Shown here: positions 9,521 to 21,251 of the stretch, one piece after another | Position numbering within the stretch: the first letter of the stretch is position 1 | How the letters are laid out: every line of letters begins with the position of its first letter | NCBI GenBank assembly: GCA_030648035.1 | Contig: JAUSII010000128.1 | Span: 1 to 51,883 of the forward strand | Length of the DNA stretch: 51,883 nucleotides | DNA from: Deltaproteobacteria bacterium | Lineage (GTDB): Bacteria > UBA10199 > SPLOWO2-01-44-7 | Reading direction: 5' to 3' | Position numbers and translations under genes: made by a program | Notes under the pieces: model-generated | Seen by the model: only the letters and a program-made list of their open reading frames with translations | Databases searched by the model: none | Told to the model about the DNA's origin: nothing

Positions 9521-9594
9521 GCGCCCGTAGCTCAGCTGGATAGAGCATCTGACTACGAATCAGAAGGTCGGCGGTTCGACTCCGTCCGGGCGCA
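9521..9594 (+). tRNA. tRNA-Arg (anticodon ACG)
   Basis: A 74-base cloverleaf: acceptor stem GCGCCCG (9521-9527) pairs with CGGGCGC (9587-9593), discriminator A at 9594. The anticodon loop CTACGAA (9553-9559) gives ACG at 9555-9557. The D arm starts TAGCTCAGCTGGATAGAGC and the T arm contains GGTTCGACTCC. CCA is not encoded. The next start codon (ATG 9601) is only six bases beyond the discriminator. Confidence 0.97.
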
Positions 9595-9600
9595 CATTTT

Positions 9601-10431
9601 ATGGAAACAAAAATCGCGATATTCAAAGGCAACAAGATTCGGAAAACCCTTTATGAGAATGAATGGTGGTTTTCTGTCATTGATGTTGTAAGCGTGCTAA
9701 CGGGCAGCACAACCCCACGAGATTATTGGTATAAAATGAAGGTCAGAGTTCAGTCAGAAGAAGGGGCTGAGTTGTCGACAAAATGTCGACAACTGAAATT
9801 GGAGTCCAGTGACGGCAAAAAATATGAAACAGACTGCGCCGACACCGAAGGCATCTTTCGGATTATTCAATCCATTCCGTCACCCAAAGCCGAACCATTC
9901 AAACGATGGCTGGCCAAAGTCGGTTACGAGCGCATTCAAGAAATAGAGAATCCAGAACTTGCCACCAAGCGCACCCGTCTGCTTTATAAACTCAAGGGCT
10001 ATCCCGAAGATTGGATCGAAAAGCGTATGCGCGGTATTGCCATCCGTGAAGAATTGACGGACGAATGGCAAAAACGCGGCGCACAAGAACAAAAAGATTA
10101 CGAAATTTTGACAGCAGAAGTTTCAAAAGCCACCTTTGGTGTTACTCCCTCTGAGTATAAAAATCTCAAAGGCCTCAAACGGGAAAATCTTCGTGACCAC
10201 ATGGATGATTTTGAACTCATTTTTACCATGCTTGGCGAACGTTCTACGACGGAAATTCACAAAAATGAAGATTCCAAAGGTCTGGCAAAACTTAAAAGTG
10301 ACGCCAAAGCTGGTGGTGAGATTGCGGGTGGTGCCAGGCGAGAATTAGAAAAGCGGCTGGGGCGATCTGTGGTTTCCAAATCAAATTTTTTACCGAATAA
10401 GAAGATTCAAAAAGCTTTAAAGGGGAAATAA
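9601..10431 (+). CDS. BRO-N domain protein, phage antirepressor / DinD-like
   Basis: 276 residues. Residues 1-110 form a BRO-N-type domain: IAIFKGNKIRKTLYENEWWFSVIDVVSVLTGS, followed by YWYKMKVR and a TEGIFRIIQSIPSPKAEPFKRWLAKVGYERI block. These match proteins annotated as phage antirepressor/Bro proteins and the DNA-damage-inducible DinD group. Residues 115-250 are helical and basic (EKRMRGIAIREELTDEWQKRG), as in the common C-terminal extension of chromosomal Bro-N proteins. It begins six bases after tRNA-Arg with no room for a ribosome site, suggesting acquisition at the tRNA end. DNA binding is probable; its target is unknown. Confidence 0.82.
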   Translation: METKIAIFKGNKIRKTLYENEWWFSVIDVVSVLTGSTTPRDYWYKMKVRVQSEEGAELSTKCRQLKLESSDGKKYETDCADTEGIFRIIQSIPSPKAEPFKRWLAKVGYERIQEIENPELATKRTRLLYKLKGYPEDWIEKRMRGIAIREELTDEWQKRGAQEQKDYEILTAEVSKATFGVTPSEYKNLKGLKRENLRDHMDDFELIFTMLGERSTTEIHKNEDSKGLAKLKSDAKAGGEIAGGARRELEKRLGRSVVSKSNFLPNKKIQKALKGK

Positions 10432-10465
10432 AACCCTTGTCAGAGGCAATATTGGCCGCTAATAC

Positions 10466-13400
10466 ATGCCGGATATGGATTTGGCTGGATTAACAAATAC
10501 AACCCGGATAATGCCCCAGACGACCGTCCCGGCGGCGACTCTTTCAACAATCCCTGAAAATCCTATAGATACTTCCACGGTTATCGCAACACCGATACCC
10601 TCTTTGTCAACGCGTCTCGTGGCAACACTTTTTCATACGCCGATTTTTTTAAAAGAGAGACTGGCCCGATTCTTGGGGGCAAAGCCTGCCACTCTTCAAC
10701 CGCCATCTCTCATGGAACCGGTCAAAACAGAACCACCACTCTCCTTCACCCATCGACTGGAGGTGCTCCAGAAGCGAATTCCGGAAATATGGAACCTCGT
10801 CGATCATAAGCAAAAAGAAGAGGCCGAGGGTTTGTTGCGAGAACAGATTATCCAATTGGCGAGAGACATCCAGAATCAGGATGAACTGCTTCTCTTTTTG
10901 AACACAAATCCTTTTAAGCATTTTAGTTTTGGTGGAAAAAACAGTGGCCTTCGACCTGCCCTTCGAAGGGCCGTTTCAAAATATTGGAGAGAGGGGACTC
11001 TCCTGCCTTGGGGAAACGGTATTTTTCTATCTGATCTATTCAAGCTTGATGGTTCGACGGGCGAGCTGGATGACATCGATCGGAGGTGGATCAAAAAAAA
11101 TATCGGAGAAAACCAGCCCCAAGAAAAAGCATGGAAACTTTTGACAACGAAAAAACTCTCTTTTGATGAAAGGGTTTTGATAGCCATGGTGTTGTTGGAA
11201 ATAAAAAGCGGATATGGAATGCTCAAAATTGCATTTCCTCCTTCTGATTTAAAAGAATACATCGAACGCCGGGCCAGAGAAGGCACTTTTGATTCGGTGG
11301 ATCTGCTCATTCTATCCACATTTGCCGAAAAAAATAGTGTCTCCATCGACCGATACTCCAGAACGGTCCAGGAGACCTTGGTCAATACGGCTTTAGGGGC
11401 GACTCCCATGGGAGATTATTTTGGTGCAGAGAGTGTTCTCTTCCCCCTCCTTTATGAAGAGAGGAATTTTTCAAAACTTCCCAAAGATCTGCAGTGGACA
11501 ATGATTCATGGCCTCGTCCAAAATTTTATCAGGAGCAACACCTCCAGGGCGGACAGCATCTTGAACACACATATGACGGAACATCTGGACCCGGACCAGA
11601 TAAAAACACTTCTTGATTTATATGAGGCCACACCAGAGACAACTATTCTTCATGCTCATCAATATATTATGCTTCTTAAACAACTCTCGGGCGTTCAAGC
11701 TGTAGAGCCGAGACGCCTTCGAAGACTGCCCACATTGGTGGGTCCCGGTTATCTTCCGCAACACGCCAGCGAGATGAAAGCAATTCTCGAATATCTGGGT
11801 AGCTATTGGGAAAAGAAATGGACAAGAGAGAATGCGGAAACATTACTGCCTCATCTGCTGGAAACGTCCGATGCCGCCCACCGCCTTTTGGAAGCGAACC
11901 ATTGTGATCACGCCGATCAACTTACCACCACCATATGGCAAGTCTTTCAAATTCTCTCAAGCTGGGAAAAACTTTATGGAGCAGAATTTTTAAAGCCCGC
12001 TATTCCCCATGCAGAAAAATGGCTTCACGGTTCCCATCAACAGTATCACATGCTTTTGCGTCTTTTTGAAACAGTCGTTCCGTTTATTGAATACCAGACC
12101 CAAGCATTAAGGATCACGCAAAGACTTTTTGATCTACATACGCGATATCATCCCAGCGTGAATGGAGAATCTCCACCAAAGAAATTGCTTGAAGCACTTT
12201 TTTTGCGTATGGACCCGAATGAAAAAGAAAGACTTTTTAAAACATTGGCCGTTGCCTATTTTAGCGACCCATTTTCAGATGCGGCTCACCAACAAAAACA
12301 GCTTTTGGAGCTTAACGGCCCACTTCCCTCCCTTGAAGCGCTGGAAGGTCTGGCCAGAGTTCTTGAACATTCTTCGCTCGATCCGAATGTTTTGGCTAAA
12401 ATAAAATCGTTGTCTCTTAACTCCCCCCATCCATTGGCCTCTTCCCAAATTCTTGCCATCATCTTTCATGTTGTTTTGGACTCCCAAGAGGCGGAAAAAA
12501 GAAAATTTCTGGAACGAATGACGCAGGGGATTCCGGAGAGAGGGTCGATGCTGGAATGGGTGTTGCTATATAGGGATCTCGACTTGCTCCCGCAAAATGT
12601 CCAGGCCGAATTTGTAACCGAACAGAACAGGCGTTATGAGGCCATCAAAAACAAAACCCACTTCAACCCTGCAAAGATTCGCCACACACTTAAAACCTGG
12701 GTGCGCGAGCGTTTTGTGCGAGTGATCGGATTATCGCCCAAAGAAATTGCTCATTTTCAACTCCATACAAAAAAATATCCAGACGCCTGGAGCCGTCACA
12801 ATTTTCTGGCTCACCTTTCGGCGATGTCGACTTTTGCCGACACAAAAGGGTTGGCGGCCATCCGCGAGCTGGTGGTGAAACTTGTTCAAACCCCCGTTGA
12901 TAAAAACGGCGATTTCACCTGGGCCTTCCGTTATCGCGGCATGCAGAAAATATTCGGAGATACTTTCATGGCGCGCTGGCCTAAAGAGCGGCGCTACACT
13001 GTGCATACCGGAGAAGAAGAGAGCACCCTCGTTGCCAGGGAGCGCTTTCTCAAAAAAATCGGGGCCGATCTCAAAGAACACTGGACCCTTCCGAAAGAAA
13101 ACAAAATATATTTTTCAGCGCTCACCCAAGATGTTCGGGAAATCACAGACGCGCTGACACTGGGAGAAAAACCCAACGAAGAAATAGTCGAACGGACCAT
13201 GCAGTTTTTCAAAGACCACCCCAAAGAGATGGAAGATACAACACTCTCGGCCTTGAGAGAAATTCGAAACGACCTGATTCAATGGCGCCGGGGCCAAAAC
13301 AGCTCTTTCAAAAATGCGGCAAATGAAGAAGTCCTCATCACCGGCGACCCACGCTACCTTGTCATAGCAGGACTGATCGGAAAAAAATCGTGCACACGCC

Positions 13401-13774
13401 CCACCGACCCGGCTCCCGGCAACAAAAGTGGTCAACCGGCAGGCCGCGCCCTGCATGGACCTCTGCTGATCGCCATCTATATGAAAGACGGAATCGAAAC
13501 AGCACGATCTCTCATTGAAGTTACAAAAACAGAAGACGGCGTTCATTACACCATCGAACCGCTCTATGAAGAGGGGGGATTCAACCGCGCCCAAGCCTTT
13601 GCCGACATCCTTCTGACCGACGCCGCGCTTCTGGAGATTGAAGCCGACAGAGTTCACAACGCTTTTACAAAACAGAATATGCAAGAACCTCCACCTCTAT
13701 TACCTTCCCGCAATCCTCAATACAACGACGCCTTCCGTCGCCCCAATGCCCCAGCAAATTATAGTTTTTCGTGA
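10466..13774 (+). CDS. Large orphan helical protein (1102 residues)
   Basis: I do not recognise this protein as a whole. The start at 10466 (or 10475) lacks an obvious ribosome site. Residues 1-60 are Thr/Pro-rich and disordered, and 85-900 are almost entirely helical with HEAT/TPR-like spacing but no clear consensus. The last 180 residues form a more compact alpha/beta part: LITGDPRYLVIAGLIGKKSC, then HGPLLIAIYMKDG, ARSLIEVTK and IEPLYEEGGF. From memory this C-terminal pattern (GDP, Ser-Cys, ARS, EPLY) recurs at the ends of other giant uncharacterised helical proteins, but I cannot name it. No membrane segment or signal. The 3' end overlaps the convergent HExxH gene by 16 bases. Confidence 0.7.
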   Translation: MPDMDLAGLTNTTRIMPQTTVPAATLSTIPENPIDTSTVIATPIPSLSTRLVATLFHTPIFLKERLARFLGAKPATLQPPSLMEPVKTEPPLSFTHRLEVLQKRIPEIWNLVDHKQKEEAEGLLREQIIQLARDIQNQDELLLFLNTNPFKHFSFGGKNSGLRPALRRAVSKYWREGTLLPWGNGIFLSDLFKLDGSTGELDDIDRRWIKKNIGENQPQEKAWKLLTTKKLSFDERVLIAMVLLEIKSGYGMLKIAFPPSDLKEYIERRAREGTFDSVDLLILSTFAEKNSVSIDRYSRTVQETLVNTALGATPMGDYFGAESVLFPLLYEERNFSKLPKDLQWTMIHGLVQNFIRSNTSRADSILNTHMTEHLDPDQIKTLLDLYEATPETTILHAHQYIMLLKQLSGVQAVEPRRLRRLPTLVGPGYLPQHASEMKAILEYLGSYWEKKWTRENAETLLPHLLETSDAAHRLLEANHCDHADQLTTTIWQVFQILSSWEKLYGAEFLKPAIPHAEKWLHGSHQQYHMLLRLFETVVPFIEYQTQALRITQRLFDLHTRYHPSVNGESPPKKLLEALFLRMDPNEKERLFKTLAVAYFSDPFSDAAHQQKQLLELNGPLPSLEALEGLARVLEHSSLDPNVLAKIKSLSLNSPHPLASSQILAIIFHVVLDSQEAEKRKFLERMTQGIPERGSMLEWVLLYRDLDLLPQNVQAEFVTEQNRRYEAIKNKTHFNPAKIRHTLKTWVRERFVRVIGLSPKEIAHFQLHTKKYPDAWSRHNFLAHLSAMSTFADTKGLAAIRELVVKLVQTPVDKNGDFTWAFRYRGMQKIFGDTFMARWPKERRYTVHTGEEESTLVARERFLKKIGADLKEHWTLPKENKIYFSALTQDVREITDALTLGEKPNEEIVERTMQFFKDHPKEMEDTTLSALREIRNDLIQWRRGQNSSFKNAANEEVLITGDPRYLVIAGLIGKKSCTRPTDPAPGNKSGQPAGRALHGPLLIAIYMKDGIETARSLIEVTKTEDGVHYTIEPLYEEGGFNRAQAFADILLTDAALLEIEADRVHNAFTKQNMQEPPPLLPSRNPQYNDAFRRPNAPANYSFS

Positions 13775-14613
13775 TGGAAGAATTTGTTTAATACTTTTTG
13801 TCTGATGAGCGAGGCCTCTGCATAAACAGACTGATAACCGATATCCGTAAAAAATGTTTGGCGGAGTAACAATAAACTGGAATCAAAAAAATCGGCGTTA
13901 ATATGCCTGGTTAAATAAGAAAAACTTCTGGTTTGTGAAAGCTCCAGCAAACAAAAATAATAGTTTAAATGATCTATTTCACGCTGGTAAGAACACCAGG
14001 CCAACCTGTCTTGTTCACTGGCAAGATATTGACAAACAACAATTTCTTCCAGAATTTGGGCATAAGCCTCCGATATGACTTGGCGTCTTGAAAAATCAGC
14101 ACCACTCAACCGCTCCACAAGGCAATGGCCCAATTCATGAAGCAAAGAAGCTAAAGCGATAAAAACATTATCATCTGCTCCGCAAATTATCATAACTCCA
14201 TCTTTATAATCGCTCCTATACCTCGAATCACCAGGGGCAAAGACAGAGTTTTTAAAAACTTCCGCTATCAGCCCATGCAACGGGCTTGTTCCAAATAAAT
14301 CCATGATTGCAACACTCGCTTTTTTAGGAATGGTCTTTTTGAAATATTCCGGTTGCAATGGAATGGGCGCTCTTTTCGAACGAACCAGCTGATAAGCATT
14401 GGGATCTGGCATAAAATCCTTTTGCGACAAAATCGTTTCAACGAGAGCATGACAATGATCCAGATTGGCATTTGAATTCCAATTTTGAATTTTTTTCCTT
14501 CTTTCTGTATGCATTTCTTCAGACAGATCAGTTCCTGTAATGGCACTTTTTACAATGCGGGCATAACTTTCTCTATAAAGCTGAATATGTTTATGGATGG
14601 GTATTGTTTGCAT
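13759..14613 (-). CDS. HExxH protein of the RiPP-like cluster, candidate peptidase or peptide-modifying enzyme
   Basis: 284 residues from ATG 14613; an upstream in-frame ATG at 14703 would sit deep inside the oxygenase gene and is less likely. The sequence HELGH at 159-163 in a hydrophobic helix (ALASLLHELGHCL) is a zinc-type HExxH site. Glu182 in SEAYAQILEE lies 19 residues later, as expected for the third ligand of a gluzincin metallopeptidase. No signal peptide is seen, so it would act in the cytoplasm. In a peptide natural-product cluster it could be the leader peptidase. Alternatively it could belong to the HExxH peptide-hydroxylase type. It is the last gene of the minus-strand operon, overlapping the oxygenase by 23 bases. 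Confidence 0.65.
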   Translation of the reverse strand: MQTIPIHKHIQLYRESYARIVKSAITGTDLSEEMHTERRKKIQNWNSNANLDHCHALVETILSQKDFMPDPNAYQLVRSKRAPIPLQPEYFKKTIPKKASVAIMDLFGTSPLHGLIAEVFKNSVFAPGDSRYRSDYKDGVMIICGADDNVFIALASLLHELGHCLVERLSGADFSRRQVISEAYAQILEEIVVCQYLASEQDRLAWCSYQREIDHLNYYFCLLELSQTRSFSYLTRHINADFFDSSLLLLRQTFFTDIGYQSVYAEASLIRQKVLNKFFHHEKL

Positions 14614-15235
14614 GGCCACCTTCAATGAACCAATCAAAAGCAACGACTTTGCGCTCCCACCCTCCATACATATCTGAAACACTGTGGTAGGAATTTTTTG
14701 CAACCTTGAATAAAGTCAGGGTGTTTGCTTGAGGCGGAATAGTTTTAAAAACAGTTCGTTCCGGATTTTCAATATGAAAACACAACTCCCCGCCAAGGCC
14801 TGCCTGATAATGACGGGATAATTGGAGTAGCATGACAACATCAATCTCTTTTCCATAATCATTATGAATGGGTATCCCTTTACTACCTTTTGAAAAAAAA
14901 TTGTATTGCGGAACAGAAGTGGCCCGCATCTGCAATGGTTCTCCCAATAATTGGTTTAAAAAAGATCTAAAAGCCTTCCCATAAATAAACCGAAGAATAC
15001 CCGGTTCCCCAAAAGGGCCCCAATACCAATTGGCATCCTTAGACAAACCATAATCTCCACTTATTTCTGTCGGAATCTGCCTTGCATACAATTCTATTTT
15101 TTCTAGGACAGCCTCTGTAAAGAAATCCGGTAAAATGGCGTGTTTAAATGGAGATGTTTTGCAAAATATTTTCTGCAACTCCCCTTTTTCATACGCCTGA
15201 ATATAAATATCATTAATCCAGCCTTGCAAGCTCAT
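14591..15235 (-). CDS. 2-oxoglutarate/Fe(II)-dependent oxygenase, peptidyl-hydroxylase-like
   Basis: 214 residues. The double-stranded beta-helix ligands are visible as His124-x-Asp126 (PIHNDYG), His184 (SYHSVSD) and the 2-oxoglutarate-binding Arg195 (GGWERK), a spacing typical of prolyl-4-hydroxylase/Tpa1-like enzymes. An N-terminal helix bundle precedes the core (LPDFFTEAVLEKI is the usual first element). Such enzymes hydroxylate amino-acid side chains in proteins or peptides. Start and stop both overlap neighbouring genes (23 bases on each side), so it is translated as part of the cluster. The probable substrate is the 52-residue precursor; this is inference. Confidence 0.85.
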   Translation of the reverse strand: MSLQGWINDIYIQAYEKGELQKIFCKTSPFKHAILPDFFTEAVLEKIELYARQIPTEISGDYGLSKDANWYWGPFGEPGILRFIYGKAFRSFLNQLLGEPLQMRATSVPQYNFFSKGSKGIPIHNDYGKEIDVVMLLQLSRHYQAGLGGELCFHIENPERTVFKTIPPQANTLTLFKVAKNSYHSVSDMYGGWERKVVAFDWFIEGGHANNTHP

Positions 15236-16106
15236 GCTTGTCCCTCCATTTTATATGAAACTTTTTATTCTTATTTGAATATGAGACATCAAGTTGTTCT
15301 GCCCCTGGCGGACGCTTGACATAACAATGCCGCCAATGAGTGGGCGCCGCCGAAAATTTATTAGTAAGAATAATCTCTGAAAATAATGTTGCGTAAAAAT
15401 ATAAATGCACTGCGTTTGCTTCAGAAGCCGTGGGAATAAAAAGTGACGATTTAAAATCTGAAATTTTATCAACACCCAGCTGATATTCAACAAGCAAAGA
15501 CGATTCTCCTGCTGTATGAGCGTCATCAAGCACGGTGAATTGCGGTTCTCGACAGAATTCCGACAACAGTAGCTCTTTGACGCCATTAAAGTCATATGAA
15601 TCATGGGAGGCACTCAAAAAGGCACCCAGCAGGTTGTCTGTGATGCCATCCAATTGTCTTGAATAAATGGGTTGAGCAAAAAGCTGAAGAGTGGACGGTA
15701 TAACTGTTTTAACAGAAGGATATCGTCTGCAAAATTCATAACACAGCTCAACGATATTTTCCTCTGGTGCAATTGGACCTATTGTCTCGGTGACTAAAAT
15801 ATCGGGGGCAGCTTCAATGGGTCTGTTATAGGATGAATTATTGACAATAATAAGATTTGAATAACCGGAGTCTTGAGCAAGTTTTTGGCCAATGGCAGCG
15901 GCAGTTGAAAAATATTCTATTCCATAAACAGCATTTTTTGTCCGCTTGGCTGCATAACTGGCAAGGATGCCCGTTCCTGTTCCTATATCTACAACGCAAT
16001 CTTCGGGTCCCACCGCCTTTTGCAGAGCCCTTTGATAAGCATCAAGCCTGGTTTTATCTGCCAACATCGCAGCATGATGCTTCATTTCAAATAATAGGTG
16101 ACTCAC
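15213..16106 (-). CDS. PRMT-like SAM-dependent methyltransferase
   Basis: 297 residues with the protein arginine methyltransferase layout. The N-terminal helix has H-x-x-ML-x-D-x-x-R-x-x-x-Y (residues 11-24). Motif I is VVDIGTGTGILA at 38-49, followed by acidic strand end YGIEYF, double-E-like loop VTETIGPIAPEENI (105-118) and THW in the C-terminal barrel (APTHWRHCYV). This catalytic set is used for arginine N-methylation. Lone bacterial members are uncommon and in biosynthetic clusters probably modify peptides. It overlaps the exporter start by 20 bases and the oxygenase by 23. Confidence 0.8.
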   Translation of the reverse strand: MSHLLFEMKHHAAMLADKTRLDAYQRALQKAVGPEDCVVDIGTGTGILASYAAKRTKNAVYGIEYFSTAAAIGQKLAQDSGYSNLIIVNNSSYNRPIEAAPDILVTETIGPIAPEENIVELCYEFCRRYPSVKTVIPSTLQLFAQPIYSRQLDGITDNLLGAFLSASHDSYDFNGVKELLLSEFCREPQFTVLDDAHTAGESSLLVEYQLGVDKISDFKSSLFIPTASEANAVHLYFYATLFSEIILTNKFSAAPTHWRHCYVKRPPGAEQLDVSYSNKNKKFHIKWRDKHELARLD

Positions 16107-17337
16107 AAAGTGCGCTATCCTTTTTTTTATGAGATTGTTTTATTAAATTTAGAAAAGTAAGAGCGATAAAAAACATGCTGACGTAAATAACGGTAACTGT
16201 ATTAAATTTTTCAGCCACAATGCCTGCCCAGAGACCAGAAAGGCACATCGCAATAAGGCAAACCTGATAATGCCGCGCTGACACTACAGCAATGACACTC
16301 TCATCGAAATGCTTGGTAAAACTATAAGAAGCAAGAATATAGACAATATTGGATGCAATATGAGCCAGAACAATACTTAAGCACGCTATAGTCAAGTTTT
16401 TTGCGGTGTAGATAACATAGTAAAGACCCAGATAAAGCATCAGCAACGCAGTAATAATGCCATTACTCGCAAAAAGTCTGTCAAAGTTGTATCTGTTCGC
16501 CACAAAGGGTCCAATGATTTGGCCCAATGTTTTAAATAAAAGAAAAACAAGTGCCGGGGCAATAATAAAACTTCCTGCAACAATTTCTTTGCCATGTTCG
16601 GCGCCTATAGCCGGTAAAAGGGACATGGCTGGAGCACAACACAACGCCAAAAATGGAGTTAAGAGAAAAGCTCTTTTCTGAAAAACATTTAAACTTTTCC
16701 ATAAAAACACGGCCCTTTTTTCAGGATTGGTTTGAACTGGATTAAAGACATCTTTATTTTTCTTATAGGCCAGGAAAATCAGCACCGCCGCCAACAAATA
16801 GGAAAATAAATCAATGAAAAGATAAATCTTTGTCCCCACCAACGGGTAAAGAACCGTCCCCAGGGCTTCTCCAAAAATAAAATTTGCAGAAAATATATAA
16901 ACGGAACAAATACTAACCAACTTAAGCTCTTCATCCTTAAATTTTCGACGAATAAAAGTCTGATAAATGGGAGATTGGAATCCACTGACAGCGGAGGTCA
17001 TAAACAATGCAACAAGCAGGAACCAGACCACCTTTGTTGCAACGCCAATCATTGGCATCACCAAAAAAATGGCGCCACAACATTCAGCCAGAATCAAAGC
17101 CGTCGATATTTTTATTTTAGCGGACAATTTTGCAGCCAAAGCGCTGGAAAAAAGGCCCGGAAAAAGACTCAATATAAATGCAACACTATAGAAAAAAGGT
17201 TGTGCCCGAGCATTACTTAGCTCTCCATAAACAGCGATTACAGTCAGAGCAGTGCCGATACCACTAAATAGCGTGGCCAAAGAAATAATGGAGAAATCTT
17301 TGTTATTTTTAAGCAATGACAGCAGTTGAAGCAACAT
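16087..17337 (-). CDS. MFS exporter of the RiPP-like cluster
   Basis: 416 residues with about 12 hydrophobic segments, a central cytoplasmic loop rich in lysine (AYKKNKDVFNPVQTNPEKRA) and a basic C-terminal tail. The N-terminal half resembles DHA3/MefA-like drug exporters: ATLFSGIGTALTVIAVYGEL, a short LSAKIK loop between helices 2 and 3, and FQSPIYQTFIRRKF after helix 4. It overlaps the TP-methylase by 29 bases and the PRMT-like gene by 20, which places it firmly in the operon as probable exporter of the modified peptide or as self-resistance. Confidence 0.85.
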   Translation of the reverse strand: MLLQLLSLLKNNKDFSIISLATLFSGIGTALTVIAVYGELSNARAQPFFYSVAFILSLFPGLFSSALAAKLSAKIKISTALILAECCGAIFLVMPMIGVATKVVWFLLVALFMTSAVSGFQSPIYQTFIRRKFKDEELKLVSICSVYIFSANFIFGEALGTVLYPLVGTKIYLFIDLFSYLLAAVLIFLAYKKNKDVFNPVQTNPEKRAVFLWKSLNVFQKRAFLLTPFLALCCAPAMSLLPAIGAEHGKEIVAGSFIIAPALVFLLFKTLGQIIGPFVANRYNFDRLFASNGIITALLMLYLGLYYVIYTAKNLTIACLSIVLAHIASNIVYILASYSFTKHFDESVIAVVSARHYQVCLIAMCLSGLWAGIVAEKFNTVTVIYVSMFFIALTFLNLIKQSHKKKDSALCESPII

Positions 17338-18130
17338 GATCTTTTCCTTGTTTTGGTTGTAGCAAAGCCAGATAGTCCTTATTCAAATATTTTCGACGAA
17401 CTCCTGGAATAAATAGTGTCGTACCAAAATGAATGTGCGGTAGCAATTCATCCAATTTTCCAATCGATCCGGTAAAAACTTCAGAAGATACCCCACTTGA
17501 AGTGGAGGAAGAAATTAAAGTGACTGGATGTTTTGCATCATAGAACTTCAAAAGATATTTATTCAACAAGTCAATCCGATTCCCCAGAGCAGCATTTTGC
17601 ATGCTGATTTGCGATGTGCCAATGGAACATACATGATAAATATAATAATCAATCGCGGCTTCCATTTGATATTCAAAGAGCAACAGGCGGTTTGCATCAA
17701 TAATGGCGGCACCATATTCTAATGGATCCCTGTTTAGATCATTCAACATACAATCAAAACTGGATATTCCGGGAATAATAATTATTTTAAAATTTCTCTC
17801 CCTTTCTTTTGCGCGCAATCTTTGCACCAATGTAACACCGATTTGTGGATGGCCTGGCAAAAGCAGTGCCACATCATCACTTTTACAACATTCCTTCAAA
17901 ATTTTTGCCTCTAAATTATGGTAATTTGTTTCGTCTTGTTCCAAATTCCGATATAATTTTTGCAAACTTTCGGCTGAAACAACTCCGTATTGCTTCAATA
18001 ATTTTTCAACTCCTTTTGGATCTGTAGCTAGATATAAAACTTTTTTGGCACGTTTAAGCTGTTCAACACCCTCAATTGTCAAATGGGTAATATTATTAAT
18101 TCCAAGACCTATTATTCTTAATGTAGTCAT
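17309..18130 (-). CDS. TP-methylase-family methyltransferase, borosin-type peptide backbone N-methyltransferase candidate
   Basis: 273 residues of the tetrapyrrole-methylase fold. GLGI at 8-11 begins the first SAM loop, KKVLYLATDP is at 29-38, a substrate-clamp helix YRNLEQDETNYHNL spans 60-73, GHP is at 93-95 and PGISSFDCMLNDLNRDP at 120-136. The last block is far closer to fungal OphMA and bacterial SonM borosin enzymes (PGxSAEDCLxADLxxDP) than to cobalamin or sirohaem methylases. Tyr60 and Tyr70 align with OphMA active-site tyrosines 66 and 76. The position of Arg72 is Asp66 here, and YGHP has become PGHP. It stands alone, without a fused substrate, as in split borosins. It starts 44 bases after the precursor candidate. 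Function is inferred from family and context. Confidence 0.78.
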   Translation of the reverse strand: MTTLRIIGLGINNITHLTIEGVEQLKRAKKVLYLATDPKGVEKLLKQYGVVSAESLQKLYRNLEQDETNYHNLEAKILKECCKSDDVALLLPGHPQIGVTLVQRLRAKERERNFKIIIIPGISSFDCMLNDLNRDPLEYGAAIIDANRLLLFEYQMEAAIDYYIYHVCSIGTSQISMQNAALGNRIDLLNKYLLKFYDAKHPVTLISSSTSSGVSSEVFTGSIGKLDELLPHIHFGTTLFIPGVRRKYLNKDYLALLQPKQGKDHVASTAVIA

Positions 18131-18140
18131 ATAAATAATA

Positions 18141-18172
18141 AATTCCAGGTGTCAGAGCTGACACCTGGAATT
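18141..18172. repeat. Perfect 15-base inverted repeat between precursor and methyltransferase genes
   Basis: Arms 18141-18155 and 18158-18172 are perfectly complementary (AATTCCAGGTGTCAG and its reverse complement) around a two-base centre. The repeat begins three bases after the precursor stop codon on the minus strand and ends ten bases before the methyltransferase start. As RNA it would be a very stable hairpin without a T run. It could be an attenuator or a 3' stabiliser raising precursor over enzyme levels, or simply a dispersed palindrome. Confidence 0.8.
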
Positions 18173-18174
18173 AC

Positions 18175-18333
18175 TCATTTAATATTTTTCTCTTCCTCCG
18201 CTTCGATCTCTTGCAACAATTTTTCGAGATCAATCGGCACAGCACTCAAACAACGAATATGGCTTGCCAAAACTTGAGAAGAAATTGAGATTTCATTCTC
18301 TCCCTGACTCTCTATGTCATTCGGCTTGATCAT
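18175..18333 (-). CDS. Candidate RiPP precursor peptide (52 residues)
   Basis: Start ATG 18333 is chosen because AAGGGGGTGAT lies four bases upstream, matching the extended ribosome-binding consensus in all but one base; an upstream ATG at 18414 has no such site. The peptide begins MIKPNDIESQ, has a small Ser/Ile/Val/Ala-rich centre (residues 15-33, single Cys28, single His25) and ends in an acidic amphipathic helix (DLEKLLQEIEAEEEKNIK). No database family is recognised. It is the first gene of a six-gene operon with peptide-modifying enzymes, which is the main reason to call it a precursor. Leader and core cannot be told apart with certainty; an accessory or antitoxin-like protein is possible. 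Confidence 0.55.
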   Translation of the reverse strand: MIKPNDIESQGENEISISSQVLASHIRCLSAVPIDLEKLLQEIEAEEEKNIK

Positions 18334-18487
18334 GACTATCACCCCCTTTCGTTTTGGAATGGGTTGCAAGGCACATGCCATCACAGGTAAAAACAGATGA
18401 TTGATTCTATTCACTTTATTTTTACAGTAATTTAAAAACTGCTCAATTTCGCTTCAGGTGTAGCAAAAGTAGGACAATAAAAAATAA

Positions 18488-18516
18488 TTGACGTAATACA
18501 TTACGTCAAATATACT
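18488..18516 (+). promoter_or_regulatory. Sigma-70 promoter with embedded palindromic operator
   Basis: TTGACG (18488-18493) and TATACT (18511-18516) are separated by exactly 17 bases. The perfect palindrome TGACGTAAT-AC-ATTACGTCA (18489-18508) fills the -35 and spacer, an ideal repressor site for the XRE protein encoded right downstream. The expected transcription start coincides with the GTG start codon at 18523, implying a leaderless message. The divergent precursor gene starts 155 bases away and could be controlled from the same site. Confidence 0.8.
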
Positions 18517-18522
18517 GCATAG

Positions 18523-19089
18523 GTGAAAACATTAAAGAAATCAAGGGAGAGCAAGGGGCTTTCCCAGAGAAAATTGGCGAGCCTGGCTTCTATTTCTTAC
18601 AAATCTTTGCAACTGGTGGAGGGAGGCACTTCTGACCCGCGCTTGTCGACTCTTGAACACATCGCCACGGCCTTGGGCTATCCGGCTCATATTCTCAAAG
18701 AGGAAATTGAGGCGATCTTCGAACTGCCTGTCGATGCGATCAAAATGATCTCTATAAAAATCTGTAGAGAGGGAGGGGCCAGCTGGAAAATCTGGCTCTT
18801 CAATTTTGTCGATGCTTTTCGCCATCACAAAACAAAAGAATATATTGAAGTGGCGCCAATTTCCAAAACACCTGAAAAAATAAAAGCTCTCTTGGCTTCC
18901 ACCGTTGAAATGTTGTGTGAAGAGATGGAAATAAAAACCCCGGAGTGGTGCCGTGGCGTTTCTGAATTATCCGAACCGTGGTTTGTCTCCGGCGTTGAAA
19001 ATTTAAAGGCCATGGCTCTGGTGGAGAGCCCTGTTCATTTTCGCAAACGAAATATTTTTGTATTGGAGAACTTTTTAAAGAGGGCTTGA
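18523..19089 (+). CDS. XRE-family regulator with antitoxin-like C-terminal domain
   Basis: 188 residues from GTG 18523. Residues 5-65 are a helix-turn-helix of the Xre/Cro type (SRESKGLSQRKLASLASISYKSLQLVEGG). The C-terminal 60 residues run PEWCRGVSELSEPWFVSG and end ESPVHFRKRNIFVLENFLKRA. From memory, a closing pattern of this kind (SPxxFRxRNIFV...L.RA) is common in antitoxins paired with nucleotidyltransferase toxins. The promoter carries a palindrome that this protein probably binds. It is divergent from the RiPP-like operon and may be its regulator, or the survivor of a broken toxin-antitoxin pair (see 19092). Confidence 0.82.
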   Translation: MKTLKKSRESKGLSQRKLASLASISYKSLQLVEGGTSDPRLSTLEHIATALGYPAHILKEEIEAIFELPVDAIKMISIKICREGGASWKIWLFNFVDAFRHHKTKEYIEVAPISKTPEKIKALLASTVEMLCEEMEIKTPEWCRGVSELSEPWFVSGVENLKAMALVESPVHFRKRNIFVLENFLKRA

Positions 19090-19091
19090 CC

Positions 19092-19145
19092 ATGACAGGG
19101 TTTCTGATTGAAGAATTGTTTCAGCTTGATTTGTCTCTGAAATAA
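19092..19145 (+). pseudogene. Possible 17-residue remnant of a toxin gene
   Basis: Two bases after the XRE stop codon, ATG opens MTGFLIEELFQLDLSLK and stops after 17 residues, seven bases before a half copy of the GTCATTGCGAG-family repeat. The tight spacing is that of an antitoxin-toxin pair, so this may be the first codons of a toxin whose remainder was deleted with the repeat at the break point. It could equally be a chance frame. Confidence 0.3.
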
Positions 19146-19151
19146 CTTTAT

Positions 19152-19180
19152 CGGGATTGCTTCGCTACGCTCGCAATGAC
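19152..19180. repeat. Half copy of the GTCATTGCGAG-family repeat
   Basis: 29 bases identical to the reverse complement of the left half of the copy at 42472-42531 (CGGGATTGCTTCGCTACGC followed by TCGCAATGAC). Its last bases contribute the upstream ATG (19176) of the ABC transporter gene. Confidence 0.85.
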
Positions 19181-19184
19181 ACTT

Positions 19185-19976
19185 ATGACCCACGCCATTG
19201 AAATTTTTGGAATTAAAAAATCCTACGGGCCTGTGGAGGCTTTGAAAGGTATTGATCTCTCCATCCGTCAGGGAGAATTTTTTGGTTTGCTCGGCCCCAA
19301 TGGTGCTGGCAAGACGACCCTCATCAACTCTCTGTTTGGCCTGGTCAACCCGAGCCAGGGCTCGATCCAAATTCTGGGAATCAATTTCAGTCAAAATCCT
19401 TCCGCGGCAAAACAGGCCATGGGGCTCTGTCCGCAGGAATTGAGCATGAACAACTTCACACCGATCGAAAAACTGATGCAATATCAAGGTGGGTTCTACG
19501 GGCTCTCGATAAAAGCGGCGCGATCAAGAGCCGAAGAACTTTTGAAACAATTCGGTCTCTGGGAAAAACGAAAAGGGGGGCGCTTTCAACTCTCCGGCGG
19601 CATGCAAAGACGCCTGATGATCGCCCGCGCACTGATGGGAAAACCGAAGATTCTGGTTCTGGATGAGCCAACCGCCGGCATCGATGTGGAATTGCGCCAT
19701 GAACTCTGGGTGTTTCTCAAAGAACTGAATGCCTCCGGCACGACCCTGCTTTTGACCACCCACTATATTGAAGAGGCCGAAAGACTTTGTGATCGGGTCG
19801 CCATCATCCACAAGGGAAACATCGTCGCTTGCGACACACCGGCGGAACTGATCGCCCGGCATCAATCGGGCCCCGATCAAGAGCGAACCGGCATGCTCAA
19901 ATTCATCCGCCCCGGATCTTTGGAAGAGGTCTTTGTGAACATTACGGGACGACGCATCGAAGGGAATCCGACATGA
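19185..19976 (+). CDS. ABC exporter ATP-binding protein, ABC-2 type
   Basis: 263 residues from ATG 19185; an alternative ATG at 19176 lies within a repeat element and adds only MTL. Walker A GPNGAGKTT is near 38-46, followed by the Q-loop LCPQELS, signature LSGGMQRR, Walker B ILVLDEPTAGID and switch TTHYIEEAE. It is a nucleotide-binding subunit of the drug/polysaccharide ABC-2 exporter class (CcmA/DrrA-like). The stop overlaps the permease start (ATGA). The exported substrate is unknown; it is not obviously part of the neighbouring RiPP-like operon, which has its own MFS exporter and reads in the other direction. Confidence 0.92.
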   Translation: MTHAIEIFGIKKSYGPVEALKGIDLSIRQGEFFGLLGPNGAGKTTLINSLFGLVNPSQGSIQILGINFSQNPSAAKQAMGLCPQELSMNNFTPIEKLMQYQGGFYGLSIKAARSRAEELLKQFGLWEKRKGGRFQLSGGMQRRLMIARALMGKPKILVLDEPTAGIDVELRHELWVFLKELNASGTTLLLTTHYIEEAERLCDRVAIIHKGNIVACDTPAELIARHQSGPDQERTGMLKFIRPGSLEEVFVNITGRRIEGNPT

Positions 19977-20737
19977 ATCTTCCGACCCCATTTTTTGCGC
20001 TCGTCAGACAGGAACTTTTCCGCTTTTGGCGGTTGATGCGCCAGACCCTTGTCCCCCCGATCATCACGACCCTTCTTTTCATCCTGATTTTCGGTTTCTC
20101 ACTGGGGAGTCACATCACCGAAATTCACGGATTCCGCTACATCATTTTCATCATTCCGGGGCTTGCCGCCATGGGAGTGATCAACGGCTCCTTTTCCAAT
20201 ACCACCACTTCTCTTTTCATGGCGAAATTCGACCGAAGCCTTGAAAATCTTTTGTCGACCCCTCTTAAGCCGTTTCAAATCGTGACCGCCTATCTCACCG
20301 CCGGAATCATGCGGGGACTGCTTATTGGCTCGCTGATTTTGACCGTGGCCCTTCTGGCCCTTAAACAAGCCCCCCAAAATCCGGCGGTGATTCTTTATTT
20401 CTTTCTCACCTCTTCGGTCATTTTCGGATCTTGGGGGATGATCGCGGCGTTGCGCGCAAAAAATTGGGACAGCATGTCGACTCTGGAAAATTTTTGCATC
20501 ACCCCTCTGGTTTATCTGGGGGGTGTTTTCTATTCTATCGATCTTCTGCCGCCGCTCTGGAGAAAAGTTTCCATGTTCAACCCCATTTTTTATCTGGTGG
20601 ACGGGGTCCGCTTTGGGGTTTTGGGTGTGCATGCCGCCCCATTATGGCTATCCATGGGCTTTGCCGCCGCACTGGCTCTCACCCTCTTTTTGGTCTGCGT
20701 CTATCTGTTTCACAGGGGATACAAATTTGTCCGTTAG
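19973..20737 (+). CDS. ABC-2 type permease
   Basis: 254 residues from ATG 19973, which overlaps the ATP-binding gene. Six hydrophobic segments are seen, with the ABC-2 signature region PLVYLGGVFYSIDLLPPLWRKVSMFNPIFYLVDGVRFGVLG near 180-220, typical of the NodJ/DrrB group. The N-terminal amphipathic helix ALVRQELFRFWRLMRQT precedes the first membrane helix. It pairs with the preceding ATPase to make a two-gene exporter. Confidence 0.92.
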   Translation: MNLPTPFFALVRQELFRFWRLMRQTLVPPIITTLLFILIFGFSLGSHITEIHGFRYIIFIIPGLAAMGVINGSFSNTTTSLFMAKFDRSLENLLSTPLKPFQIVTAYLTAGIMRGLLIGSLILTVALLALKQAPQNPAVILYFFLTSSVIFGSWGMIAALRAKNWDSMSTLENFCITPLVYLGGVFYSIDLLPPLWRKVSMFNPIFYLVDGVRFGVLGVHAAPLWLSMGFAAALALTLFLVCVYLFHRGYKFVR

Positions 20738-20744
20738 GAAAAAA

Positions 20745-21251
20745 ATGAAAGACACAAGACCGGTGGAAGCAAAGGGGATTCTATTTCTTCTAACCAACAG
20801 AAAAGAATTGGCCGAGGATGTCATGGCCCGGTTCACTTCTCTCTTGGGAGAGGTGGAACACAAAAGTGCGTGGCATCCTTTTGAAAATAAATATTATGAA
20901 GAAGAGATGGGGCCGAATCTGGAACGGTGTCTGGTCTGTTTTGAAAATATTTTTGAACCGTGGCGATTGGCGGAGTTGAAGGAGCTGGCAAAAGAGATGG
21001 AGTCCCATCCGCGAACCATCAACATCGATCCGGGATATGTCGATTTATCGAAAGTGGTTTTGGCCTCTGGTAAAGGGGGTGGGCAAAAAATTGCGCTGGC
21101 CCAAAATATTTATGCCCACACCGTTTTGCGTTATGAAAAGGGGAAGTGGATTCCATCAGATGGAACTTTTCCCGATTTGAAGGAAGAGACTTATCACCGA
21201 GATCTGCTCAAAATTCGCGCGGCATTAAAGGAATCAGCCAACCGGCTTTAA
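20745..21251 (+). CDS. DUF4416 family protein
   Basis: 168 residues from ATG 20745, seven bases after the permease. Family marks are the opening FLLTNRKELAEDVMARF, HPFENKYYEEEMG, an arginine/cysteine block NLERCLVCFENIF, and TINIDPGYVDLSKVVLASGKGGGQKIALAQNIYAHTVLRYEKGKW. DUF4416 proteins are found mainly in deltaproteobacteria, Nitrospirae and planctomycetes and have no established function. The DPGY and AxNIYAHT blocks hint at a nucleotidyl or phosphate-binding fold, which is a guess. The 3' end overlaps the convergent deoxyhypusine-synthase-like gene by 18 bases. Confidence 0.88.
   Translation: MKDTRPVEAKGILFLLTNRKELAEDVMARFTSLLGEVEHKSAWHPFENKYYEEEMGPNLERCLVCFENIFEPWRLAELKELAKEMESHPRTINIDPGYVDLSKVVLASGKGGGQKIALAQNIYAHTVLRYEKGKWIPSDGTFPDLKEETYHRDLLKIRAALKESANRL

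What the first reader, a model, noticed from the sequence alone, without database searches (positions are those of the whole stretch)
13759..18333. Undescribed RiPP-like biosynthetic operon built around a borosin-type TP-methylase
Sequence shows six minus-strand genes: a 52-codon gene with a near-perfect ribosome site, TP-methylase, MFS exporter, PRMT-like methyltransferase, 2OG-Fe(II) oxygenase and HExxH protein. From the methyltransferase on, each overlaps the next by 20-29 bases. The stretch is clearly more A+T-rich than its flanks and ends against an orphan gene. TP-methylases of this subtype are known to N-methylate peptide backbones (borosins), PRMTs and 2OG oxygenases modify peptide side chains, and HExxH enzymes can cleave leaders. 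I know of no described family combining this set. Inference: a horizontally acquired peptide natural product with backbone and side-chain methylation plus hydroxylation.
Basis: partly seen in the sequence, partly recalled or inferred. Interest (0 to 1): 0.92.

Follow-up and report, generated by a model that had tools for sequence, protein, structure and literature searches.

The report
Peptide-modifying operon with altered borosin-like methylase
A horizontally acquired bacterial gene set appears to make, modify and export a small peptide, using a methylating enzyme related to the known peptide-backbone methylators but changed at its active centre, so its chemistry may be new and can be tested directly.

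Summary
The six-gene minus-strand operon (13759-18333) is real. It sits on an A+T-rich insert beside a tRNA-Arg gene that is missing from the five same-family genomes compared. The RiPP reading is well supported: related operons in Serratia and Rouxiella have a small gene, a hairpin, a TP-methylase, an HExxH protein, a 2OG oxygenase and a homologous MFS transporter. Their small genes are two or three tandem 25-residue units; in S. liquefaciens all 39 differing codon comparisons are synonymous. The window peptide carries one similar stretch by shuffle test but not by BLASTP or profile. The borosin label is not supported: the methylase falls outside a 12-row borosin-type group (AU p 0.0024), its catalytic Arg position holds Asp, surrounding active-site residues are replaced, and no borosin binding domain was found. 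Backbone N-methylation cannot be assumed. A PRMT-like enzyme with its Arg-binding loops kept faces a peptide with a single Arg (R27). New variant of a known kind; the chemistry is untested.

The parts
18175..18333 (-). small gene, 52 aa, likely precursor peptide; stretch HIRCLSAVPIDLEKLLQEI at residues 25-43; single Arg (R27), single Cys (C28)
   Evidence: similarity to Serratia/Rouxiella repeat units by shuffle test, not by BLASTP or profile
18141..18172 (-). 14-pair hairpin between small gene and methylase, probably damping downstream expression
   Evidence: (53-nt stretch folds at -26.7 kcal/mol, z -8.4); hairpins in the same place in L005, L013, L014
17309..18130 (-). TP-methylase of a group sister to borosin enzymes; D66, P92, G98, D145, N147, R148, Y165, H166
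16087..17337 (-). MFS transporter, probable exporter
   Evidence: PF07690; 30% identical to the Serratia operon's MFS over 385 columns, E 2e-47
15213..16106 (-). PRMT-like methyltransferase with double-E stretch (ETIGPIAPEE, from 107) and THW (256)
14591..15235 (-). 2OG-Fe(II) oxygenase, HxD at 124-126, H184, R195
13759..14613 (-). HExxH protein, HELGH at 159, SEAYA at 181; peptidase or oxygenase
   Evidence: no family match
18488..18509 (.). 22-base palindrome TTGACGTAATGTATTACGTCAA between divergent genes, candidate operator
18523..19089 (+). XRE-type (HTH_3) regulator, divergent, part of the insert
   Evidence: absent from the same-family loci fetched
9521..9595 (+). tRNA-Arg(acg) beside which the variable region lies

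Best explanation
A RiPP pathway of a group sister to, not inside, the borosins. The divergent XRE regulator probably controls the operon at the palindrome. The strongly translated 52-aa precursor is made in excess because a hairpin damps the downstream genes. The TP-methylase methylates the precursor with SAM at a site set by its altered active site and recognises the HxRxxxAxPx[ND]Lx[KR] stretch itself, not a borosin binding domain. The PRMT-like enzyme N-methylates the single Arg (R27), the 2OG oxygenase hydroxylates a residue of the stretch, the HExxH protein trims or oxidises the peptide, and the MFS protein exports the product. Shown here: gene content, related operons with a precursor-like small gene, hairpins, clade position, active-site substitutions, insertion. 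Inferred: every catalytic step, its site and order, export, and the operator.
For: Operon anatomy. Related operons with a repeat-type small gene in S. liquefaciens, S. marcescens and R. aceris; units held by purifying selection, 39 synonymous and 0 non-synonymous differing codon comparisons in S. liquefaciens, 15 and 0 in S. marcescens. MFS homologous. Hairpin after the small gene in 4 of 4 loci folded (two of the four are near-copies). Window stretch matches the units better than all but 9 of 100,000 shuffles. Double-E and THW loops kept in the PRMT-like protein and one Arg in the peptide.
Against: The window peptide and the Serratia/Rouxiella units are not linked by BLASTP or by a profile of the units (not listed down to E about 41, where the printout was cut). 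In R. aceris the units differ at 14 non-synonymous as well as 18 synonymous comparisons. The HExxH and 2OG proteins show no detectable homology to Serratia's, and the PRMT-like gene has no counterpart there. The relation of G197_B is unresolved. The best NCBIfam match of the methylase is YabN, far below its cut-off. No expression or mass data.
Confidence: 0.68

Rival explanations
1. A divergent split borosin: the TP-methylase still N-methylates the peptide backbone, the paired exchange (Arg to Asp at 66, acidic residue to Arg at 148) restoring the same lock with reversed charges.
For: Borosin enzymes are the closest solved relatives by sequence and by fold search (weak model, pLDDT 60, TM about 0.4). 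Y70 (SonM Y71) is kept in all rows. A borosin class without a binding domain is listed in PMC11395268 (figure legend).
Against: Outside the borosin-type group, AU p 0.0024 (the group was named after an earlier tree was seen). Tyr93, Phe99, Trp166 and Gln167 of SonM are also replaced in the four closest rows. SonM R67A is inactive (PMC8429565).
Confidence: 0.3
2. Not a peptide pathway: the TP-methylase and partners act on a small molecule or a host protein, and the 52-codon gene is a small regulator or an unrelated peptide.
For: TP-methylases in general act on porphyrins, diphthamide and unknown substrates (recalled); the window peptide is not linked to the Serratia units by standard searches.
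Against: A small gene precedes the methylase in all four D-type loci of the Serratia/window group, with conserved repeats and a hairpin; a TIGR03975 RiPP enzyme stands beside G197_B.
Confidence: 0.14
3. A decaying or silent operon whose gene order survives without a product.
For: One of 46 genomes held for the phylum has it. A broken copy of the Serratia operon exists (S. marcescens pE17, methylase frame cut short).
Against: All six window genes are open and closely coupled, and the 2OG, PRMT and HExxH motifs are intact.
Confidence: 0.06

Closest known systems
Split (type IV) borosins, SonM/SonA of Shewanella
   Same: Separate small gene beside a TP-methylase; sequence and fold relation
   Different: SonM R67 position is Asp, lock residues replaced, outside the clade; no binding domain found in the peptide
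Fused fungal borosins (OphMA, dbOphMA, MroMA)
   Same: Best-scoring solved relatives of the methylase (MroMA 5e-17)
   Different: Separate peptide and enzyme here; MroMA has R, Y, F, W, Q where the window has D, P, G, Y, H
Borosin class 4 of PMC11395268 (separate enzyme and core, no binding domain)
   Same: Separate enzyme and peptide, no binding domain found
   Different: Only the figure legend was seen; members and active sites could not be compared
Alpha-ketoglutarate HExxH peptide hydroxylases (TIGR04267)
   Same: HExxH motif in a peptide operon
   Different: No match of the window protein; the related Serratia protein does not match either, only its Streptomyces relatives do, below cut-off
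Protein arginine methyltransferases
   Same: SAM motif, double-E and THW loops
   Different: Bacterial, in a small-peptide operon; weak overall similarity (best E 8e-9)
YabN (methylase with pyrophosphohydrolase domain)
   Same: Best NCBIfam match of the methylase; shares the PGHP and Asp145 positions
   Different: No pyrophosphohydrolase domain; 79.6 bits against a cut-off of 525; separate branch

Membership tests
Borosin | TP-methylase (PF00590) enzyme | tested here: met
   PF00590 56.4 bits, cut-off 27.8
Borosin | Catalytic Arg (SonM R67 / OphMA R72) | tested here: not met
   Asp66 in the window; Arg in 12 of 12 borosin-type rows
Borosin | Groups with known borosin enzymes | tested here: not met
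   AU p 0.0024 against; group of window, Serratia and Rouxiella 96/95
Borosin | Borosin binding domain in the precursor (type IV) | tested here: not met
   LigA-like match at E up to 1 in 0 of 5 D-type small genes; in 5 of 6 R-type small genes, one of them above Pfam's cut-off. Other borosin classes lack the domain
Borosin | Alpha-N-methylated backbone in the product | not testable with these tools
   Needs mass spectrometry
RiPP pathway | Short precursor gene next to modifying enzymes | tested here: met
   recurs in 3 related operons
RiPP pathway | Precursor peptide modified by the enzymes | not testable with these tools
   Needs co-expression and mass spectrometry
Protein arginine methyltransferase | Double-E and THW loops with a PRMT-like SAM domain | tested here: met
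   Alignment to PDB PRMT 6dnz, positions; the loop names are recalled
Alpha-ketoglutarate HExxH peptide hydroxylase (TIGR04267) | Match to the family model | tested here: not met
   No match for the window protein at E up to 5

The most novel reading that the evidence does not exclude
A new RiPP class: a borosin-sister TP-methylase with its active-site charges reversed (Arg to Asp at 66, acidic residue to Arg at 148) carries out a methylation other than backbone N-methylation on leaderless, repeatable core units, and a bacterial PRMT-like enzyme methylates the core's single arginine.
Probability: 0.35. Interest if true: 0.85.

Novelty: new variant of a known kind. Interest (0 to 1): 0.7.

Why it matters
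TP-methylases acting on peptides are so far known for backbone N-methylation. A sister clade with that active site rewired, tied to precursors without a binding domain, would show which residues decide where the methyl goes and would give new enzymes for peptide tailoring. A PRMT-like enzyme facing a one-arginine peptide is a simple, decisive test of arginine methylation in a bacterial peptide pathway.

Tried and rejected
Leader protease as the settled role of the HExxH protein: unproven; its single-sequence model was too poor to use (pLDDT 39) and was not searched. Orthology of the 2OG and HExxH proteins with Serratia's: tested and not found. Link between the G197 repeat (YQPAAVRCAPAVDPS) and the window peptide: weak, 244 of 20,000 shuffles as good; not relied on. 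Viral contigs: 145 pattern matches, none a relative. E. coli genomes: no match for the S. liquefaciens operon. Plasmids: no match for the window's HExxH (E up to 0.1) or 2OG protein; 5 distant records for the PRMT-like protein. Copy of the tRNA-Arg end as attachment site: none of 12 bases or more. Rfam at gathering threshold, 12000-21000: none.

Reach of the searches. The one genome-contig scan used two short peptide patterns: 49 stretches matched, 2 were relatives, so intermediate members may be missed. Of 12 plasmid records with a methylase match I opened 8 (H1, H2, H3, H5 as H25, H6, H7, H8 as H24, H9); H4, H10, H11 and H12 were not opened. Of the 14 records found with G197_B I opened only three in addition to those already read or fetched with it (H23, H24, H25, H26 fetched; the other Bradyrhizobium records were not). 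Whole-genome searches with the methylase, genomes with a hit of genomes searched: 4 of 99 (own; two in long frames that I read as YabN-like; one weak hit in G085 not resolved), 1 of 46 own phylum, 3 of 195, 0 of 3, 0 of 7, 0 of 3, 6 of 386 (five read as R-type and one as YabN-like), 0 of 9, 0 of 398 at E 1e-27; limits differ between calls. I found no Pseudomonadota genome to use as a centre (rpoB identities).

Rows left out of the final tree and residue count: G197_A (neither pattern), Bradyrhizobium guangxiense (R-type by eye), G657 (R-type by eye), Azospirillum (not read through that region); L034, L036 were read but never put in. The 'borosin-type' group is thus all remaining rows other than D-type and YabN-like ones, chosen after seeing the residues and a first tree, so the residue counts describe the groups and do not test them independently.

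Literature. The papers that define split borosin types V-X and type 0 were not read: one (Imani 2022) is not held, the others did not turn up in my searches, so I cannot exclude that one of their types contains this clade. A search for PRMT with RiPP terms gave 0 papers. Seen: PMC8429565 passages; PMC11395268 passages including a figure legend, and its introduction; PMC11285071 passages; PMC12636437 passages. Other papers were seen as search listings only.
Full report
What is there. The small gene has AAAGGGGGTGAT ahead of its ATG; the methylase gene shows no such site and follows a 14-pair hairpin (the 53-nt stretch folds at -26.7 kcal/mol, z -8.4). An XRE-type regulator diverges at 18523-19089, with a 22-base palindrome between.

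The stretch is an insert. G+C of 13775-19089 is 0.394, against at least 0.459 in 180 overlapping windows of that size outside. In four same-family genomes (L045-L048) the ATP-synthase c gene and a tRNA-Arg are followed by the ABC transporter that the window carries at 19176, and no window gene of 9601-19089 has a match between them. In the fifth (L049; its contig ends inside the 9601 gene, so the tRNA is not seen) a 34% relative of the 1102-aa gene is followed directly by the ABC transporter, the junction lying just after that gene's stop codon. So the operon and its regulator were added at a variable site beside tRNA-Arg (9521-9595). No attachment repeat was found. The flanking ATP-synthase genes and the ABC transporter, 65-71% identical in all five same-family genomes, argue against a foreign contig.

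Related operons. tblastn of plasmids gave a 36.7% identical methylase in Serratia liquefaciens; the single genome-contig scan gave Rouxiella aceris and Serratia marcescens. All three loci read: small gene, methylase, HExxH protein, 2OG oxygenase, then an MFS gene on the other strand. The MFS is homologous to the window's (30% over 385 columns). The HExxH and 2OG proteins are the same kinds of enzyme, but no homology to the window's was found, and no PRMT-like gene was seen there. Streptomyces relatives of the Serratia HExxH protein match the alpha-ketoglutarate HExxH peptide hydroxylase model below its cut-off. A hairpin follows the small gene in all three (-15.2 to -17.8 kcal/mol, z -2.2 to -4.9; the two Serratia loci are near-copies). 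In S. marcescens pE17 the copy is broken.

The precursor. The Enterobacterales small genes consist of two or three tandem 25-residue units, HPRLQAAAPMNLAKVIGGF plus linker, with hardly any leader. Comparing units codon by codon over 19 codons, the differing comparisons are 39 synonymous and 0 non-synonymous in S. liquefaciens, 15 and 0 in S. marcescens, 18 and 14 in R. aceris. The window peptide has one similar stretch, HIRCLSAVPIDLEKLLQEI. Scored against the units, 9 of 100,000 shuffles do as well, and it ranks second of 58,556 six-frame 20-mers of the window. The pattern HxRxxxAxPx[ND]Lx[KR] has 15 matches in 977,728 translated residues of the DNA held: 11 in Enterobacterales units and 4 that are the window gene and its copies in overlapping loci; but it was read off these sequences. 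Against: BLASTP finds no alignment and a profile of the units does not list the peptide. I take the relation as likely, not proven.

The methylase. Borosin enzymes are its nearest solved relatives by sequence (MroMA 5e-17) and fill the 50 listed places of a fold search with a weak model (pLDDT 60, TM about 0.4). The nearest NCBIfam model is YabN, far below cut-off. In a 20-row tree the window groups with Serratia and Rouxiella (96/95), apart from 12 borosin-type rows including MroMA (94/93), and placing it inside that group is rejected (AU p 0.0024); an earlier 21-row tree gave 93/73 for the window group. At the position of the catalytic Arg, 12 of 12 borosin-type rows have Arg and 5 of 5 D-type rows Asp; at window position 148 D-type rows have Arg 5 of 5 and borosin-type rows Asp, Glu or Asn 12 of 12; borosin-type rows also have Glu145, Trp165 and Gln166 12 of 12, Tyr92 11 of 12 and Phe98 10 of 12. 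In the four closest rows Tyr93, Phe99, Trp166 and Gln167 of SonM correspond to Pro, Gly, Tyr and His; this mapping to SonM numbers rests on spacing, since SonM is not in the alignment. SonM R67A is inactive, and R67, Q167, W166 and F99 form the two locks of that enzyme (PMC8429565). Backbone methylation is therefore not to be assumed. Its locus has a tandem-repeat peptide joined to pentapeptide repeats at a contig end, a second methylase, an Asp hydroxylase and a radical SAM protein at 379.5 bits against the 281.85 cut-off of TIGR03975.

Binding domain. A LigA-like match, which I take as the sign of a borosin binding domain (my reading), appears at E up to 1 in 5 of 6 small genes beside R-type methylases, once above Pfam's cut-off, and in 0 of 5 beside D-type ones.

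The other enzymes. The PRMT-like protein keeps the SAM motif, the double-E stretch ETIGPIAPEE and PTHW (loop names recalled); the peptide has exactly one Arg, R27. The 2OG oxygenase has HxD at 124-126, H184 and R195 and resembles the peptide oxygenase YhhC (5.1e-13, below cut-off). The HExxH protein has HELGH at 159 and SEAYA at 181, a spacing that I recall from zinc proteases, but PMC12636437 (passages) shows that HExxH enzymes in peptide pathways can be oxygenases that hydroxylate and even cleave.

Standing. The RiPP reading is well supported; the borosin label fails on tested features; the chemistry is open. A borosin class lacking the binding domain is already listed in print (PMC11395268, figure legend), and the main split-borosin papers could not be read, so I rate this a new variant of a known kind, with a real chance of being more.

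Noticed in passing
   Followed up: partly
L009:4253-9471: Pantoea dispersa plasmid operon: iron-containing redox enzyme, Rieske protein, a 25% identical relative of the PRMT-like protein, MFS and ATP-grasp.
   Followed up: no
L006:3757-8769 and L007:5722-8873: R-type methylase with a small gene and a prolyl oligopeptidase, in Bradyrhizobium and in the archaeon Haloarcula: split-borosin-like clusters.
   Followed up: partly
9601-10431: BRO-N gene, 97.5% identical over 159 aa to one in a same-family genome of another genus (L049) whose neighbouring genes are 34-57% identical: recent transfer.
   Followed up: no
19150-19180: GGGATTGCTTCGCTACGCTCGCAATGAC, a short inverted-repeat-like element beside the insert, with a near copy at the same junction in L049.
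   Followed up: no
L017:3899-5744 and L018:3842-5720: Streptomyces plasmids: three small genes followed by an HExxH protein related to the Serratia one.
   Followed up: no
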